In this document: one piece after another, positions 3,415 through 10,868 of the stretch | Numbering within the stretch: position 1 is the stretch's first letter | Layout: every line of letters begins with the position of its first letter | NCBI GenBank assembly: GCA_014189685.1 | Contig: DVAB01000005.1 | Location: 1 to 14,865 of the forward strand | Origin: Candidatus Naiadarchaeum limnaeum | GTDB lineage: Archaea; Undinarchaeota; Undinarchaeia; Undinarchaeales; Naiadarchaeaceae | Length of the DNA stretch: 14,865 nt | Reading direction: 5' to 3' | Notes under the pieces: generated by a model | What the model saw: only the letters and a program-made list of their open reading frames with translations | Database searches by the model: none | What the model was told of the DNA's origin: nothing | Program-made: the position numbers and the translations under genes

Positions 3415-3460
3415 TTGCCCGAACACGGAAAATGTAACCCCTGAACAGTAGTGATAGCGA

Positions 3461-3485
3461 AAGACTTCAACGGATTTGGAGTCTT
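3461..3485 (+). promoter_or_regulatory. Ten-base-pair hairpin upstream of the large surface protein gene
   Basis: AAGACTTCAA (3461-3470) pairs with TTGGAGTCTT (3476-3485) along all ten positions, with one G-U wobble, around a 5-nt CGGAT loop. It lies between the two TATA-like boxes, 38 nt before the ATG. If the upstream promoter is used it would be an RNA leader hairpin; if only the proximal promoter is used it is an untranscribed inverted repeat that could bind a regulator. Confidence 0.5.
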
Positions 3486-3492
3486 GAATAGG

Positions 3493-3501
3493 TATAAAAA
3501 A
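3493..3501 (+). promoter_or_regulatory. Proximal TATA box deciding the start of the large surface protein
   Basis: TATAAAAAA is centred about 26 nt before the ATG at 3523, the spacing expected for a leaderless archaeal transcript. This supports ATG 3523 over the in-frame GTG at 3451, which would put 24 non-signal residues ahead of a perfectly good signal peptide. Confidence 0.6.
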
Positions 3502-3522
3502 GGAGTAGTTTATTCGAAAGAT

Positions 3523-6500
3523 ATGCAAAAAACAAAAATTCATTTCGCAGCCGCATTCATTATAGCGGCTACTTTTTTCCTTATTGGTTTAGGGACAGTA
3601 GAAGCTGCAATAAGTCCAACTATTTACATAACTGCGCCTGTAAACAACACAAAGACAAATGACAACACACCAAGCATATTTTTCTACTTTACTGATCCTG
3701 AAGCTGGGAACGGGAGTGCAACTCTTTATTTTAATGCAACAAATGTTTCGTATAATGGAACTGTCTTTAACAACACAAACACATCTCTCACAGCGAGCAC
3801 GCTCTCAGATGGGAACTGGACCTTTTGGGTTAATGTAACAGATTTTTTTGGGGATACGAATAAGAGTTGGATGTATGACATCTTGATTGACACCACTCCG
3901 CCTATTATAACTTTTGTAAACCCTACTGATTCAAACATAAGCGCACAAAGAGATTGGTTTTACATAAACACTACTTTAAACGAGGAAGGTCAATCTGCAA
4001 ACGCAGAAATAAATGGCAGTAATTATAGTATGGCGCAAGGAACAACTAATTTGGAATGGTTTATTAATAGAAGTGGACTTTCTGAGGGCAACTATACATG
4101 GCGAATTTTTGTAAATGATACGCTTTTGAATAATGGGAAAACTGGATTCGCATGGACAAATATAACTGTTGTTTTTGATAATGATGGTGATGGATTTAAT
4201 TCAAGCATTGATTGCAATGATAATAATGCGACTGTTAGGCCATTACTTAATAATAGTGAAAATAATATAAGCTCAAACATTCTTGTCTGCTCCGGAATTT
4301 ATATCGCAAAAATTTATCTTGGTAATAACAACATTTATCTGGATGGAAACGGCTCAACTATTGGCGGAAATAATTCTACTGCGGGGCCATGGCCTAATGG
4401 AATTACAGTGCATCCGTACAATTCAATTGAAATAAGAAATTTTAACATACAAAATTATAGTGGCAATGGTATCATTTCTGATATTACTCCAGGCACAAGC
4501 AACACTAACATTATAAATAATAATATTTCTCATATCAGCGGCGCTGCAATAAATCTAACTACAACAATTAATTTCACAATAAAAAACAACAATATTTTCT
4601 CAAGCAAATTTGGAATACTTTTGGACAGCGCAAACTTTACAACAATTAAAAACACAGTATTCGAGAGCAGCATAGAGGAATATGGAATCGCTCTTATAAA
4701 TTCCGCCGGCTTTAATACAATTGAAAACAACAGCATTAATGCAGGGAGTATTGGAATAGATTTGGCTTATTTAACAGGGTATAACAGCATTAGCTACAAC
4801 AACATCACCTCGTCATCAATATACGCAATCATTATTACAGGAAGCGTATACAACAACATAACATTCAATAATATTTACGGAAATAACTGGGATGGCATCT
4901 TTTTTGACACAAGCGGCGCAGATCCAAGCAGCAACAATGTTTCGTATAACAACATTTATAGCAACAGCAATTATGAGATAAATAACCAGCAAACCGCAAA
5001 CATAACTGCAGAATTTAATTGGTGGGGCACAACAGACTGCAGCGCAATAAACGCATCTATTTATGATTATTATGATAACTCAAGCCTTGGAATTGTTGAC
5101 TGGGCGCCATTTTTGAATGATAGCTATCCAAATGGCGTTCCAAGTCCCTGCCCATCACCGCCGCCAAATACCCCTCCGACAATTAACATAACAGCACCTC
5201 CCAACAACACAAAAACAAACGACAACACTCCTTTAATCACATTTTACTTTACTGACCCTGAAAACACTACAGCAGAATCACGACTCTACAATTCATACTG
5301 CCAATTTTCAACAAATAACACAACCACGCAAAATAATACTTATACTAATTTAGAAAGCAACTCAGATCCAAATTGTTTGGGCGGAATTCCTGATGGAAAT
5401 TGGAGCTTCTGGGTTAATGTTACGGATTACATAACTGAAAACAAGAGCGAGCTTTTGTATTTGATAATCGACACAATTCCGCCTGGAGTATTTTATGACA
5501 CAGGGACAGACCAGAATGGAACATACAGCAAAAACTGGATTTTTATAAATGGGACAGCCACTGATCCAACTCCAAGCATAGGGCTTGTGCTTGAATTTAA
5601 TGGCGCAAATGAAAGCTGGGATAATTGCCAAACAACTGACGGGACGTGGGTAAATTGCTGGAAAAATAAAACAGGCTTGGCAGATGGGACTTATTTATTT
5701 AAGGTTTATGCACATGACGGCGCTGGAAATGAAAACACAACGGAAATAAGGATTGTCACTCTTGATACAACCCCTCCATCAAATATTCCATGGATTAACG
5801 ATACCTCAAATGGAACAAACTGGATTTATTGGGAGTGGCCGCAGGATGCAACTTTAGGATTTAGCCACTATGAAATCTGGCTAAACAATACTTTTAGGGA
5901 AAACAAGAGCACTTCCAATTATAATGCAACTGGCTTAAGCGCAAACACAGGCTACGAGATTCAAGTCAGGCCAGTTGATGATGTTGGCAATATTGGAAAT
6001 TGGACAAATGATACTGGATTTACAAAAGCTTCCACAGGAGGAGGCGGAAATAACAATGACGGTGGCGGCGGAAATAACGGAGGCGGGGGAGTAAGCACAA
6101 ATCTTACAAACAAAACAAACCCACAAGCCAGAGTTCCTGGAGTTTCTCAAGCAATAAACAGAACAGTTCAAACACCTTCAAGCCTGATAATAAATCTTTC
6201 AAAAGAATTCTCAGCGCGCGGCTTGATAAAATTAGAGCTAAGAGTTGGCGATGTAATCCAAGTTGAAATTGCAAAAGAGCCGCACACAATAACAATTGAT
6301 AAAATAAATGCGAAAAACAAAACTGTAACTTTGATAATTCGCTCAACTCCAACAGAGGTTAATTTGAAAGAGAGCGGAAGCGTTTTGGTTGATGTGGATG
6401 GGGATGGGAAATATGATATCAAGATTATAATTGATAGAGTTGATGGAGAGAAGACAACTGTAATTCTGCAGGACTTAAAAGTTGAGCGCGAGCAAACACC

Positions 6501-6621
6501 AACTGCATTTTTAACTTTAACACAGGGACAAGTGGGGATATTAGGAGCGATAATTGGAGCAGCAATGTTTAGTATACTTGTGTATTTTTATGTAAGAAAA
6601 AGAGAGATGGTGAAACGATGA
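3523..6621 (+). CDS. Large membrane-anchored surface protein: Ig-like repeats, metal-binding motif, beta-helix, FN3
   Basis: A probable adhesin-like cell-surface protein of 1032 residues, counted from ATG 3523. Order: signal peptide (1-28); Ig-like repeat (32-126); second Ig-like domain (127-218); a MopE-type metal-binding motif with DNDGDG and DCNDNNATV (219-238); a right-handed beta-helix (PbH1/NosD-like) with N-rich rungs such as NNNIFSSKFGILLDSA (about 260-535) ending in FNWWGTTDC; an Ig-like domain nearly repeating the first (552-652); another Ig-like domain (655-748); an FN3-like domain (752-835); a Gly/Asn linker (839-856); a beta domain with DVDGDGKYD (957-965); a transmembrane helix (1004-1023); and a basic tail. 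Dozens of N-x-S/T sequons suggest heavy N-glycosylation. The in-frame GTG at 3451 is an alternative start but less likely. Its TGA overlaps the next ATG, so the two proteins are probably made together. The ligand is unknown. Confidence 0.9.
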   Translation: MQKTKIHFAAAFIIAATFFLIGLGTVEAAISPTIYITAPVNNTKTNDNTPSIFFYFTDPEAGNGSATLYFNATNVSYNGTVFNNTNTSLTASTLSDGNWTFWVNVTDFFGDTNKSWMYDILIDTTPPIITFVNPTDSNISAQRDWFYINTTLNEEGQSANAEINGSNYSMAQGTTNLEWFINRSGLSEGNYTWRIFVNDTLLNNGKTGFAWTNITVVFDNDGDGFNSSIDCNDNNATVRPLLNNSENNISSNILVCSGIYIAKIYLGNNNIYLDGNGSTIGGNNSTAGPWPNGITVHPYNSIEIRNFNIQNYSGNGIISDITPGTSNTNIINNNISHISGAAINLTTTINFTIKNNNIFSSKFGILLDSANFTTIKNTVFESSIEEYGIALINSAGFNTIENNSINAGSIGIDLAYLTGYNSISYNNITSSSIYAIIITGSVYNNITFNNIYGNNWDGIFFDTSGADPSSNNVSYNNIYSNSNYEINNQQTANITAEFNWWGTTDCSAINASIYDYYDNSSLGIVDWAPFLNDSYPNGVPSPCPSPPPNTPPTINITAPPNNTKTNDNTPLITFYFTDPENTTAESRLYNSYCQFSTNNTTTQNNTYTNLESNSDPNCLGGIPDGNWSFWVNVTDYITENKSELLYLIIDTIPPGVFYDTGTDQNGTYSKNWIFINGTATDPTPSIGLVLEFNGANESWDNCQTTDGTWVNCWKNKTGLADGTYLFKVYAHDGAGNENTTEIRIVTLDTTPPSNIPWINDTSNGTNWIYWEWPQDATLGFSHYEIWLNNTFRENKSTSNYNATGLSANTGYEIQVRPVDDVGNIGNWTNDTGFTKASTGGGGNNNDGGGGNNGGGGVSTNLTNKTNPQARVPGVSQAINRTVQTPSSLIINLSKEFSARGLIKLELRVGDVIQVEIAKEPHTITIDKINAKNKTVTLIIRSTPTEVNLKESGSVLVDVDGDGKYDIKIIIDRVDGEKTTVILQDLKVEREQTPTAFLTLTQGQVGILGAIIGAAMFSILVYFYVRKREMVKR
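3619..3903 (+). repeat. First copy of the duplicated Ig-like domain
   Basis: Residues 33-127 of the large surface protein. It shares NNTKTNDNTP, FYFTDPE, DGNW-FWVNVTD and the closing LIDT-PP with the segment at 5176-5484. Identity is also visible at DNA level around the NNTKTNDNTP codons. Confidence 0.85.
4300..5127 (+). repeat. Beta-helix rungs within the large surface protein
   Basis: Residues about 260-535 consist of degenerate rungs of roughly 20-25 residues with the rhythm N-N-x-I-x-x-x-x-x-G-I-x-L-x-x-S. This is typical of right-handed parallel beta-helices and explains the Asn-rich, AAC/AAT-heavy DNA in this stretch. Confidence 0.8.
5176..5484 (+). repeat. Second copy of the duplicated Ig-like domain
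   Basis: Residues 552-654 of the large surface protein, the counterpart of 3619-3903. It is slightly longer through an insertion between FYFTDPE and DGNW that carries two cysteines. The two copies bracket the metal-binding motif and the beta-helix. Confidence 0.85.
6609..6613 (+). promoter_or_regulatory. Shine-Dalgarno core before the propeller gene
   Basis: GGTGA lies inside the last codons of the upstream gene, four bases before the ATG at 6618. Together with the ATGA stop/start overlap it supports translational coupling. Confidence 0.55.
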
Positions 6622-8294
6622 AAAACAAACGCAAAATTCTTTTAGTGATATTAACTCTGCTTTTGATTATGGTCATAGCTTTTCCTACACCAACCGTACT
6701 AGCAAAGAAAAGTTCTCATATGCCTGCTACGGAAAGTGATATAACTATAGGCAATGTTGCATCGGGATACGCACACTTTAACAAGCCATCGTGCGATCAA
6801 ATTCCAATTGACGAACCGCGCTCAAATCATAATGATATGGTTTATGGGGGCACGGCTATCCATGGACACTTTTTTACTTTTGATCCGACAACAGATACTT
6901 TTACTGATAAAGGGATACCTGTACCGCATGATCCTTTTCAAACAATTGTAGATCTTACAATAGGAAAGGATGGTAAAGTTTATGGGCTATCATATCAAGA
7001 AAATACTCTATTTATCTACGATCCTGCAACAGATACAACATTAACAAGAGGTCCTATTTCTGATCCGCAGCTAACTGGAGGCACTCTTACAGCTGGTTTA
7101 GATGGGAGAATCTATGGATCAATAAGCACACTTGTTGGGAGTTTGAAAGTGTTTATGTACAATCCTGCTACAAATACATTTAGACAAAATGTTATTGATT
7201 TTTTTGTTGAGAGTACTATTGGAGAACTGACAACTGGATCTGATGGAAAAATATATGCTGGTGCGCGGAGTGGCAGGCAAGCAGTTAATAGCGGACATCT
7301 TGTTATTTATGACCCTGCCTCAGATAAAGCAAGTGATAAAGGAAAACCATTTCCATTTATTGATGGTATTTGGGCCCTAACAGCAACCGACTCCGGCATA
7401 ATTTATGGTGTTGCGGTCGATTATAGTACTACTGATATTGTTTACTTGTTTTCATATGATCCCGCAACAGATACTTTTACTAATAGAGGAACTTTAATGA
7501 ACAATGGAATAGTGTGGCATAATGCTATGACAACTGGTAATGATGATTTTATTTATATAGGAGGAAGTGAAATACGAAGTAGTACTATACTCATCCATAA
7601 GCTTTTCATATATGATACACGCACATCCACATTATCCAGTAAAGAAATTCAGCCGATAGATAAAAGGCCATTTGCTTTAGCAACAGCTCCTGATGGAAAA
7701 ATATACATTGGCACAGGAACAAGTACTGATACTGGAGGGGTTCGTTCTCCTACAGATTTAATTGTTTACGATCCAGTTACTCAAAGCTTTACATCTAAAG
7801 GAGATGCAGTTGCAGGAGAATTATATATTAGTGCTTTGGCGATCAATGATATCTTCTCTTCCTCAACAACCACCCCAACAGCAGATGCAGGCCTAGACCA
7901 AACAGTTCTTGTAAATGAAATTGTAAATTTGAACGGTCAAGGAACAGATCCTGATGGTTTCATAACTTTATACGAGTGGGACTTTGAAGGAGATGGGATA
8001 TATGACTGGAGCTCTACAACATCCGGTGTAACTAATCATGTTTACACTTTGGTAGGAATTTACGATGCGACATTGAGAGTAACAGATAATGATGGCCTAC
8101 AAGATACTGATTTTGCAATTATAAATGCCATCGAAAAAGAAGAAACGCAATGCAACCCAAGAGATTTACCAAGCTGGTATAAAGGATGTTACCAAAACTC
8201 GGATTGTTGCCCTGGCTGGATTTGTTTGTACATGCCAAACCTTCCGGATAATAAACCGGGAAAGTGCATCCTAGCCAATGAATTTGACAATTGA
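6618..8294 (+). CDS. Secreted seven-repeat beta-propeller with PKD domain and knottin-like C-terminus
   Basis: A 558-residue exported protein. A hydrophobic signal peptide (about 1-29, ending TVLA) is followed by seven repeats built around a strand such as LFIYDPATDT-x-T-x-x-G (near 86, 131, 178, 228, 277, 329 and 381), several preceded by DGKVYG or DGKIYIG. This is the pattern of a seven-bladed beta-propeller. Residues about 418-505 form a PKD domain (TADAGLDQTV, YEWDFEGDG, YDATLRVTDNDG). The last 47 residues carry six cysteines (512, 524, 530, 531, 536, 550) in a C-x11-C-x5-CC-x4-C-x13-C order typical of inhibitor-cystine-knot peptides. There is no transmembrane anchor. The ATG overlaps the stop of the anchored surface protein by ATGA, so the two may form a complex. 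Propellers and PKD domains usually mediate protein or glycan binding; the partner is unknown. Confidence 0.88.
   Translation: MKNKRKILLVILTLLLIMVIAFPTPTVLAKKSSHMPATESDITIGNVASGYAHFNKPSCDQIPIDEPRSNHNDMVYGGTAIHGHFFTFDPTTDTFTDKGIPVPHDPFQTIVDLTIGKDGKVYGLSYQENTLFIYDPATDTTLTRGPISDPQLTGGTLTAGLDGRIYGSISTLVGSLKVFMYNPATNTFRQNVIDFFVESTIGELTTGSDGKIYAGARSGRQAVNSGHLVIYDPASDKASDKGKPFPFIDGIWALTATDSGIIYGVAVDYSTTDIVYLFSYDPATDTFTNRGTLMNNGIVWHNAMTTGNDDFIYIGGSEIRSSTILIHKLFIYDTRTSTLSSKEIQPIDKRPFALATAPDGKIYIGTGTSTDTGGVRSPTDLIVYDPVTQSFTSKGDAVAGELYISALAINDIFSSSTTTPTADAGLDQTVLVNEIVNLNGQGTDPDGFITLYEWDFEGDGIYDWSSTTSGVTNHVYTLVGIYDATLRVTDNDGLQDTDFAIINAIEKEETQCNPRDLPSWYKGCYQNSDCCPGWICLYMPNLPDNKPGKCILANEFDN
6873..7802 (+). 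repeat. Seven propeller repeats
   Basis: Seven copies of a strand motif resembling YDPATDTFTxKG are spaced by about 45-52 residues, covering residues 86-395. DNA similarity is visible between copies, for example ACAGATACTTTTACT at the first and fifth, which suggests relatively recent blade duplication. Confidence 0.8.
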
Positions 8295-8430: not shown

Positions 8431-8463
8431 TTTGACAATTGAAAAGGATGAGAACAATTTTTG
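8431..8463 (+). repeat. Imperfect direct repeat, copy 2
   Basis: Starts TTTGACAATTGAAAAGGATG and matches 8283-8315 at 28 of 33 positions, exactly 148 bp downstream. It includes the start region of the second beta-helix gene. Confidence 0.7.
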
Positions 8464-10868
8464 TGAACAAAAAAATATACACAGTACTTATTATAGCTTT
8501 AGCGCTGTTTTTTGTAAAAATTAATTTCGCGGCCGCGGATTGCACGAATGGAAACAATCCGCCTACAGATGGAGATTGGCTAATTGGGAATGAAACAATT
8601 TGCGAGGATATGGCAATTGTTCTGAATGGGAATTTAACTATAAATGATACTGGAAATGCGACTTTTAGGAATGTCACTCTTTACCTAAACTCATCTTATA
8701 ATCTTTCAAACGGAATCTCTGTTTCGGGGGGTTCTTATTATATCTACCCTAATTCTGCAGGTGAGCCATCTAGCATACTTGCTTATGATCCACTGTATCA
8801 CTACAAATTTGCAGTTTACAGTGGCTCAACTTTTATAATTGCTGATTCTGAGGTAAGTGATGTTGGGATAAATTCAGATTTAGACAAAAGCGGTCTTTAT
8901 ATAGCAGCGCACAATGCAATAGTCAACAGCAGCAATATAAGCAATAGCGTGCATGGAGTAATTGTTGATTTTGCAAACAACACTCAAATAATAGGAAACG
9001 ATATATTCGATATTGACTTCTTTGGAGTTCTTTTATTTGACTCCAATTACGCACTAATTTCGGATAATTTTATTGAAGATGTCGGCGCAGATGGCGTAAG
9101 AGTTGTTGCCTTTTTTGCAACAAGCAACCACAATGTTATCAACGGAAATACAATTCTCAATCCGCCAGAAGCTGGAATACTTGTTGATAAAGCGTCAGAC
9201 ATCAATATAACGGAAAATTTAATTCAAAACTCGGAACAGGAAGGAATAAGTATAGAAAATGTGAACACAACTGCGCTTATCGCAAACAATACAATAACTT
9301 CTTCAGGATTCACAGGGATTAAAGTTTTTAATTCTATAGGAGGAAATTATCTAAAACTATTGGGAAATTCTGTCTCAGATACCCAGAATATAGCAGGAAT
9401 TTGGCTTGCTAAAACAAACTTCACAGATATCGGCTACAATAATTTAAGCGAAAACTATGTTGGGCTATATTTGACAGATAGCCAAAACAATTCTATACAT
9501 GATAACACGATCTATCTAAGTGAGAAGAATGGAATATACTTAACTGGTTTTACATTTGGAAACAGGGAAACCGCAAATAACACTATTGAAAACAATACAA
9601 TCTCAAACACAACAATCGGACCAGAAATTACATTGGCCGATTCAGATTCGAATGTAATTAAAAATAACACAATTCTTTCTGATATGACTGGAATTTATCT
9701 CAGCAGTTCGCATAAGAATAACTTATTTTTAAATAATCTTGAAAGTAGCGTCGCGACAGTGGGAACAGGAATTGCTTCAGACTACGGATCTACGAATAAC
9801 AATATAAGCGAAAACGAAATCAAATTTTTTGGACTTGGGATTTATTTAAAAGAGAACATTGATACAACAATTGCAAATAACGAATTCGTAAAGAATGGCT
9901 ATGGGATAATAATGGGCGATTCATTTGGAATAGACGTTTTTAATAACTTGATTAATAACACAGATCCGCTTGCAATAGGAGGATTTGGAATTGAAATATT
10001 TAGGTCAAACGCAACAATAGGGGGTAACGAAGTAATAAAGTATAGCCATGGCATTTATATTAGCGATAACTCATATCCCATCATTGAGAATAACACTCTT
10101 GCCTCAAACGAGGCTTTTGGAATATTTCTGATCAACTCCTCAGCGATTACCTCGCCCCCGGATCTAAATGGGACAAACACATTTGCTCCAAATAATTCAG
10201 AGGGTAGAATACTCCAGCAATGGTTTTTAACAGTTAGAGTTATAGATACGAATTCAAATCCGATAGAGGGAGCTGATGTACTTGTATGTCAGAACATAAC
10301 TAATACATGCTGGGGCACGATGACAGACCCAAATGGATATGTTTATAATTTGGGTGCTATTGAATACGATATTAACAATTCTGGAATCCTTACAGATTGG
10401 AGTCTGCATAACATCTCCGCAAACAAAACAGGTTATGTTACAAACTCAACTCTTGAAACAATTGATTCTTATAAATCAATTATAATTCAATTGGCGCCTA
10501 TACCTCCTACACCGCCACCACAGCTACAAGGAGAAGGCGGAGGCGCAAACATTGGCACAGGACTGCATACAAACTCATCAGGAAAGCCAGAAGCAGGAGT
10601 ACTCAGAGCTCCACAACCTCCTGCACTGCCAGTTCCAACTCCGACAGTTACTACACCTGCCCCGGCCCCTGAGCCAGCCACAATTCCACCATCAGCAGGC
10701 CCAACTGGTTTAATAACATTGGCACGAATTAGGGAAAATTCACTCTGGCTTTTATTAGTAATAGCTATGCTAATTATGGGGTATTACTCATACAGAAAGT
10801 ATGGAAAAAAGCGCACAACTTCAAGAAAAGTTTATAAAACCAATCTGTACTCTATAGAAGTGACATGA
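8448..10868 (+). CDS. Membrane-anchored NosD-like beta-helix surface protein
   Basis: An 806-residue surface protein, counted from ATG 8448. A signal peptide (about 1-30, ending NFAAA) precedes a Cys32/Cys52 pair and an N-terminal cap. Residues about 140-570 are right-handed beta-helix rungs (for example NNSIHDNTIYLSEKNGIYL), typical of PbH1/NosD-like repeats. Residues about 590-682 look like a carboxypeptidase-regulatory-like/Ig domain (LTVRVIDTNSNPIEGADVLV, ISANKTGYV) with two cysteines. A long Pro/Thr/Ala stalk follows (683-750), then a transmembrane helix (about 765-781) and a basic tail. N-x-S/T sequons are abundant. The start is uncertain: TTG 8439 and GTG 8463 are in frame; ATG 8448 is favoured as the only ATG, while GTG 8463 has an AGGATGAG ten bases upstream. 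Related NosD proteins in copper enzyme maturation are periplasmic, but this one looks structural or adhesive. Ligand unknown. Confidence 0.88.
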   Translation: MRTIFVNKKIYTVLIIALALFFVKINFAAADCTNGNNPPTDGDWLIGNETICEDMAIVLNGNLTINDTGNATFRNVTLYLNSSYNLSNGISVSGGSYYIYPNSAGEPSSILAYDPLYHYKFAVYSGSTFIIADSEVSDVGINSDLDKSGLYIAAHNAIVNSSNISNSVHGVIVDFANNTQIIGNDIFDIDFFGVLLFDSNYALISDNFIEDVGADGVRVVAFFATSNHNVINGNTILNPPEAGILVDKASDINITENLIQNSEQEGISIENVNTTALIANNTITSSGFTGIKVFNSIGGNYLKLLGNSVSDTQNIAGIWLAKTNFTDIGYNNLSENYVGLYLTDSQNNSIHDNTIYLSEKNGIYLTGFTFGNRETANNTIENNTISNTTIGPEITLADSDSNVIKNNTILSDMTGIYLSSSHKNNLFLNNLESSVATVGTGIASDYGSTNNNISENEIKFFGLGIYLKENIDTTIANNEFVKNGYGIIMGDSFGIDVFNNLINNTDPLAIGGFGIEIFRSNATIGGNEVIKYSHGIYISDNSYPIIENNTLASNEAFGIFLINSSAITSPPDLNGTNTFAPNNSEGRILQQWFLTVRVIDTNSNPIEGADVLVCQNITNTCWGTMTDPNGYVYNLGAIEYDINNSGILTDWSLHNISANKTGYVTNSTLETIDSYKSIIIQLAPIPPTPPPQLQGEGGGANIGTGLHTNSSGKPEAGVLRAPQPPALPVPTPTVTTPAPAPEPATIPPSAGPTGLITLARIRENSLWLLLVIAMLIMGYYSYRKYGKKRTTSRKVYKTNLYSIEVT

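What the first reader, a model, noticed from the sequence alone, without database searches (positions are those of the whole stretch)
8151..8267. Knottin-like six-cysteine module at the C-terminus of an archaeal propeller-PKD protein
Six cysteines occur as C-x11-C-x5-CC-x4-C-x13-C (residues 512-550), with NSDCCPGWIC at the core. This is the inhibitor-cystine-knot order found in small toxins and protease inhibitors of eukaryotes. As the tail of a secreted archaeal protein it could be a stable binding tip, an inhibitor or a toxin-like payload.
Basis: partly seen in the sequence, partly recalled or inferred. Interest (0 to 1): 0.62.

Follow-up and report, generated by a model that had tools for sequence, protein, structure and literature searches.

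The report
Knottin-like tail on archaeal surface protein
A secreted protein of a small-genome archaeon ends in a six-cysteine module with the cysteine order and spacing of animal and plant knottins; similar modules, single or in long tandem strings, recur patchily in other archaeal surface proteins, so this is probably a disulfide-locked binding domain rather than a toxin.

Summary
Residues 512-550 of the 558-aa ORF at 6618-8294 read C-x11-C-x5-CC-x4-C-x13-C, at the stated coordinates. The clustering of cysteines is far beyond chance (P about 2e-6).

The knottin (inhibitor cystine knot, ICK) reading is supported as a likely fold, not proven. Alone, the module scores 20.9 bits against Pfam Toxin_12 (cut-off 21.0). 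AlphaFold models (mean pLDDT 68-70) show the expected beta-hairpin and resemble almost only knottins, but weakly (Foldseek E>0.6, Z up to 3.4). Disulfide pairing could not be read out.

No whole-length orthologue was found, and none of the five held relatives in its phylum has the module.

An archaeal profile built without the window finds ICK-like modules in 11 of 394 archaeal genomes and none in 43 other, mostly bacterial, genomes. It hits almost only knottins in the PDB. Examples: a pilin-like protein with 23 tandem modules, one with 17 that passes Pfam Conotoxin_I2, a PKD-module-PKD protein, three proteins ending in such a module.

Best reading: a secreted propeller-PKD surface protein whose C-terminal knottin-like domain is a rigid binding or stabilising tip. 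A toxin or inhibitor payload is unsupported. Convergence with animal toxins is the default.

The parts
6618..8294 (+). Gene of the secreted propeller-PKD-knottin-like protein (558 aa); its start overlaps the stop of the upstream gene, so it is probably in the same operon
   Evidence: ORF and translation; Pfam
6618..6704 (+). Likely signal peptide (residues 1-29, ending PTPTVLA before KK)
   Evidence: Read by eye from the sequence; no signal predictor was run
6810..7847 (+). Kelch-like beta-propeller repeats (about residues 65-410; limits approximate)
   Evidence: Pfam Kelch_6 32.8 bits, cut-off 25.3; Kelch_1 21.8 bits, cut-off 20.1
7869..8126 (+). PKD domain (about residues 418-503)
   Evidence: PKD_4 50 bits, cut-off 27; many PKD proteins match this part
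8151..8267 (+). Six-cysteine knottin-like module C-x11-C-x5-CC-x4-C-x13-C (residues 512-550)
3451..6621 (+). Upstream neighbour: 1056-aa beta-helix / Ig-like protein with a C-terminal transmembrane stretch
8439..10868 (+). Downstream neighbour: NosD-like beta-helix protein with a C-terminal transmembrane stretch

Best explanation
The module is a small disulfide-locked domain of ICK (knottin-like) fold at the C-terminus of a secreted surface protein. The protein is exported by an N-terminal signal. The six cysteines are oxidised outside the membrane, helped by a DsbA-like enzyme. The module then acts as a rigid, protease-resistant tip that binds a partner (a glycan, an S-layer component or another cell's surface) or caps the PKD stalk, next to a propeller that may also bind ligand. 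Shown: cysteine order and spacing, clustering beyond chance, domain order, resemblance to known knottins, recurrence of such modules in archaeal surface proteins, a DsbA-like gene in the genome. Inferred: disulfide pairing, export, partner binding.
For: Cysteine pattern far beyond chance. Module alone: Toxin_12 20.9 bits against 21.0, E 0.0006; the nearest PDB sequence by phmmer is an ICK spider toxin, E 0.026. Profile of the window plus four G292 modules: the great majority of its 21 PDB hits are known ICK peptides, best 7e-6. Profile of archaeal modules without the window: 62 PDB hits, almost all knottins, best 7e-9. AF2 models have a hairpin at 27-30/41-45; Foldseek and VIA matches are almost all knottins or Dickkopf-type domains. 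The archaeal profile finds modules in 11 of 394 archaeal genomes, including PKD-module-PKD in G292 and C-terminal modules in G051, G091 and G117. Window-free profiles score the window's core above all 1000 tail shuffles (G167: 12.9 bits, E 0.006; combined: 11.6 bits). A DsbA-like protein with a CPFC site is encoded. The neighbouring same-strand genes look like surface proteins.
Against: Model confidence is only moderate; Foldseek E-values are above 0.6 and VIA Z is at most 3.4, all below any firm threshold. No disulfide connectivity was available. The first loop (11) and last loop (13) are longer than in most archaeal modules (6 and 4). A G292-only profile does not recover the window (2.8-5.2 bits). 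No VKOR or DsbB was found, and the DsbA-like ORF ends early. No relative in the phylum carries the module. Nothing tested here shows binding.
Confidence: 0.55

Rival explanations
1. A toxin-like or inhibitor payload: the C-terminal knottin is presented or released to block a channel, protease or receptor of a competing or host cell.
For: The nearest sequence matches are channel toxins, and the weak NCBIfam match is called a putative bacteriocin.
Against: The NCBIfam match is 18 bits against a cut-off of 80. No inhibitory loop and no immunity gene was recognised. Similar archaeal modules sit in long tandem strings or between PKD domains, which suits adhesion or structure better. Cysteine-driven matches to toxins say nothing about activity.
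Confidence: 0.12
2. A disulfide domain that is not a cystine knot (different pairing), used only to stiffen or protect the C-terminus.
For: Low-confidence models; pairing unknown.
Against: The CC doublet with x5 and x4 spacing matches ICK families closely, and window-free profiles of such modules find almost only ICK structures.
Confidence: 0.2
3. A metal-binding cysteine cluster (zinc or iron-sulfur), or cysteines left unpaired.
For: The organism may be anaerobic; no VKOR or DsbB was found.
Against: The protein has an export signal, no CxxC pair occurs in the module, Pfam found no zinc or Fe-S family, and the only metal-protein PDB hits (Fe-hydrogenase, E about 2) match just the CCPGW stretch.
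Confidence: 0.08
4. A chance or decaying tail with no function.
For: No orthologue found; the module is absent from five relatives, whose genomes are 75-86% complete.
Against: Cysteine clustering P about 2e-6 and the exact core spacing in only 0.03% of tail shuffles; open frame with no defect.
Confidence: 0.05

Closest known systems
Inhibitor cystine knot peptides (knottins): spider ion-channel toxins (Pfam Toxin_12), squash trypsin inhibitors, tachystatin, asteropsins
   Same: C-C-CC-C-C order, x5 between C2 and CC, x4 after CC, predicted C-terminal hairpin
   Different: Fused to the end of a large secreted archaeal protein; longer first and last loops; pairing not shown; just under the Toxin_12 cut-off
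Dickkopf_N (PF04706) and Conotoxin_I2 (PF17557) domains
   Same: Same type of module; other archaeal proteins found here (G167, G035) pass these Pfam cut-offs
   Different: The window module itself matches neither
CCPGW family putative bacteriocin (NCBIfam NF047792)
   Same: Shares the CCPGW string and an upstream Cys
   Different: 18 bits against a cut-off of 80; the model is only 50 residues long, whereas here the string lies in the tail of a 558-aa protein
Archaeal modules in G292 (four tandem copies; PKD-module-PKD)
   Same: Similar layout, PKD neighbour, long last loop (10-15), similar residues around and after Cys6 (RCCLPNEF / KCILANEF)
   Different: A profile of these alone does not recover the window; the sixth position is a CC doublet there

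Membership tests
Inhibitor cystine knot (knottin) fold | Six cysteines in the order C-C-CC-C-C with permitted loop lengths | tested here: met
   C-x11-C-x5-CC-x4-C-x13-C
Inhibitor cystine knot (knottin) fold | Disulfides 1-4, 2-5, 3-6 forming a knot | not testable with these tools
Inhibitor cystine knot (knottin) fold | Compact fold with an antiparallel beta-hairpin | tested here: inconclusive
   Hairpin-like strands predicted, pLDDT 68-70; matches almost all knottins but Foldseek E>0.6, VIA Z at most 3.4
Pfam Toxin_12 (PF07740) | Score at or above gathering cut-off of 21.0 bits | tested here: not met
   20.9 bits for the module alone, 15.5 in the full protein
CCPGW putative bacteriocin (NF047792) | Score at or above cut-off of 80 bits | tested here: not met
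   18.1-18.3 bits
Dickkopf_N (PF04706) / Conotoxin_I2 (PF17557) | Pfam match to the window module | tested here: not met
   No match listed up to E=10
PKD domain proteins | PKD match above cut-off | tested here: met
   PKD_4 50 bits, cut-off 27

The most novel reading that the evidence does not exclude
Some archaea use knottin domains as a general surface-protein building block (single at C-termini, between PKD domains, or strung in tens along pilin-like proteins) as stable recognition elements for contact with other cells; the window is one divergent single-copy case.
Probability: 0.3. Interest if true: 0.7.

Novelty: new variant of a known kind. Interest (0 to 1): 0.45.

Why it matters
A 2015 scan of archaeal PDB chains with a cystine-stabilised-peptide predictor found none (PMC4491269). 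Finding ICK-like modules in 11 of 394 archaeal genomes, some in long tandem arrays on surface proteins, would extend knottins to archaeal cell surfaces. It would give tractable candidates for how small, possibly symbiotic archaea recognise partners, and a natural source of stable scaffolds.

Tried and rejected
Homologues of the module in phages, plasmids and IMG/VR by tblastn: only chance matches at E 3 or worse, or none. A second pattern hit in the own genome (G000:C17) lacks six-Cys context and looks like chance. Most of the 65 viral pattern hits are low-complexity or cysteine-soaked frames; only L204 (four modules in one ORF) looks real. Alignment A3 contained a wrong letter in one hand-typed row and was not used for any search or claim; A4 replaced it. 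A G292-only profile failed to recover the window, so close homology to those modules is not claimed. The CCPGW string in a conotoxin table belongs to a framework V peptide without the ICK order. PHROGs gave a virion structural protein match to the propeller only; PADLOC none. Literature searches found no paper on archaeal knottins in the held library.

Full report
OBSERVATION. The ORF at 6618-8294 (+) encodes 558 residues. Its cysteines are at 59, 512, 524, 530, 531, 536 and 550. The last six give C-x11-C-x5-CC-x4-C-x13-C at 8151-8267, as reported. The chance of at least 6 of 7 Cys in the last 47 residues is 1.7e-6. Even given six Cys in the tail, 1.0% of shuffles have the loose ICK order and 0.03% the x5/x4 core.

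CONTEXT. Pfam finds Kelch repeats and a PKD domain (418-497). A hydrophobic N-terminal stretch looks like a signal peptide (read by eye). The gene starts inside the stop of an upstream 1056-aa beta-helix/Ig-like protein and is followed by a NosD-like beta-helix protein and a likely lipoprotein. This is a run of surface-protein genes. The genome is 0.98 Mb, 98% complete, in a phylum with six held genomes; it carries archaeal-type TFIIB. The organism could not be named with these tools.

IS IT A KNOTTIN? Alone, the module scores 20.9 bits against Toxin_12 (cut-off 21.0, E 0.0006), and 15.5 in the full protein. phmmer against PDB gives an ICK spider toxin at E 0.026. AlphaFold2 on residues 508-558 gives pLDDT 68 alone and 70 with three rows from L204, with strands at 27-30 and 41-45 of the model. 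Foldseek and VIA list mainly knottins (hanatoxin, EETI-II, psalmotoxin, tachystatin) and Dkk4, but with E above 0.6 and Z at most 3.4, below firm thresholds. Disulfide pairing could not be read. I put the ICK fold itself at about 0.7.

RELATIVES. Whole-protein searches recover essentially only the PKD part elsewhere. In its phylum only the own genome has the module, but the five others are 75-86% complete. A DNA pattern survey of 394 archaeal genomes and follow-up found ICK-like modules in other archaeal proteins. G167: 857 aa, 148 Cys, pilin-like N-terminus by eye, 23 tandem modules; Pfam Dickkopf_N 74.7 bits and Toxin_12 32.7 bits, above both cut-offs. G035: 1744 aa, 17 modules, Conotoxin_I2 129.9 bits (cut-off 27). 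G292: four tandem modules in one protein, one in a PKD-module-PKD protein, one in a 286-aa protein. G051: one mid-protein module. A profile of 29 archaeal modules, window excluded (A4), hits 11 of 394 archaeal genomes at E 0.001 or better, in 10 genera; the genomes that supplied the modules are among them. It hits 0 of 43 other genomes reached through PKD matches, mostly bacterial; that control lacks a positive of its own. Follow-up found modules at the extreme C-terminus in G051, G091 and G117. The same profile hits 62 PDB sequences, almost all knottins, best E 7e-9. A viral contig, L204, carries four modules in one ORF.

HOW CLOSE IS THE WINDOW TO THESE? Leave-one-out tests are modest. A G167 profile scores the window 12.9 bits (E 0.006 for 2000 proteins), above all of 1000 tail shuffles, on the core only. 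A combined profile gives 11.6 bits, again above all shuffles. G292-only and G035-only profiles do not separate it (5.2 bits each). A4 does not call the window genome at E 0.001. The kinship therefore rests on layout and core, not on firm sequence homology. Convergence on the ICK spacing is common in eukaryotes (general knowledge) and remains the default for any link to animal toxins.

CAN IT FORM DISULFIDES? The own genome encodes a DsbA-like protein with a CPFC site (L258:1693-2445), though that ORF looks like a joined, truncated pair. Pfam VKOR and DsbB were not found.

MECHANISM. Most likely a rigid disulfide-locked tip on a secreted propeller-PKD protein, for binding or stability. Shown: pattern, domain order, resemblance, recurrence in archaeal surface proteins. 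Inferred: pairing, export, binding. A toxin or inhibitor payload is possible but has no positive evidence beyond cysteine-driven resemblance; the bacteriocin family match is far below its cut-off.

NOVELTY. The held literature gave no report of archaeal knottins; one 2015 PDB scan predicted none in archaeal chains (PMC4491269). Automatic Pfam labels such as Dickkopf_N may already sit on some of these proteins in databases (own knowledge, unchecked). I rate it a new variant of a known kind. The patchy archaeal set, especially the pilin-like string, is more interesting than the single window copy.

Noticed in passing
L159:1993-4563 (-), genome G167 contig 3: 857-aa protein with 148 cysteines: a pilin-like N-terminus followed by 23 tandem ICK-like modules; passes Pfam Dickkopf_N and Toxin_12 cut-offs.
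   Followed up: partly
L104:3535-8766 (+), genome G035 contig 37: 1744-aa protein with 17 tandem ICK-like modules; passes the Pfam Conotoxin_I2 cut-off with 130 bits. A member of the same family (G151) has similar arrays.
   Followed up: partly
L258:1693-2445 (-), own genome contig 51: DsbA-like ORF in which the C-terminal half of one DsbA domain precedes the N-terminal half of another, then stops; possibly a frameshift, deletion or assembly error. A neighbouring membrane ORF carries a CPAC motif.
   Followed up: partly
L204:7208-8599 (-), IMGVR_UViG_2886410390_000001: A viral or prophage contig ORF with four ICK-like modules.
   Followed up: partly
L267:1965-2639 (-), L268:1644-2291 (+), L262:2273-3025 (-): Archaeal ORFs of 216-251 aa that end in an ICK-like module, as the window protein does; one (L268) weakly resembles Pfam Toxin_18.
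   Followed up: partly
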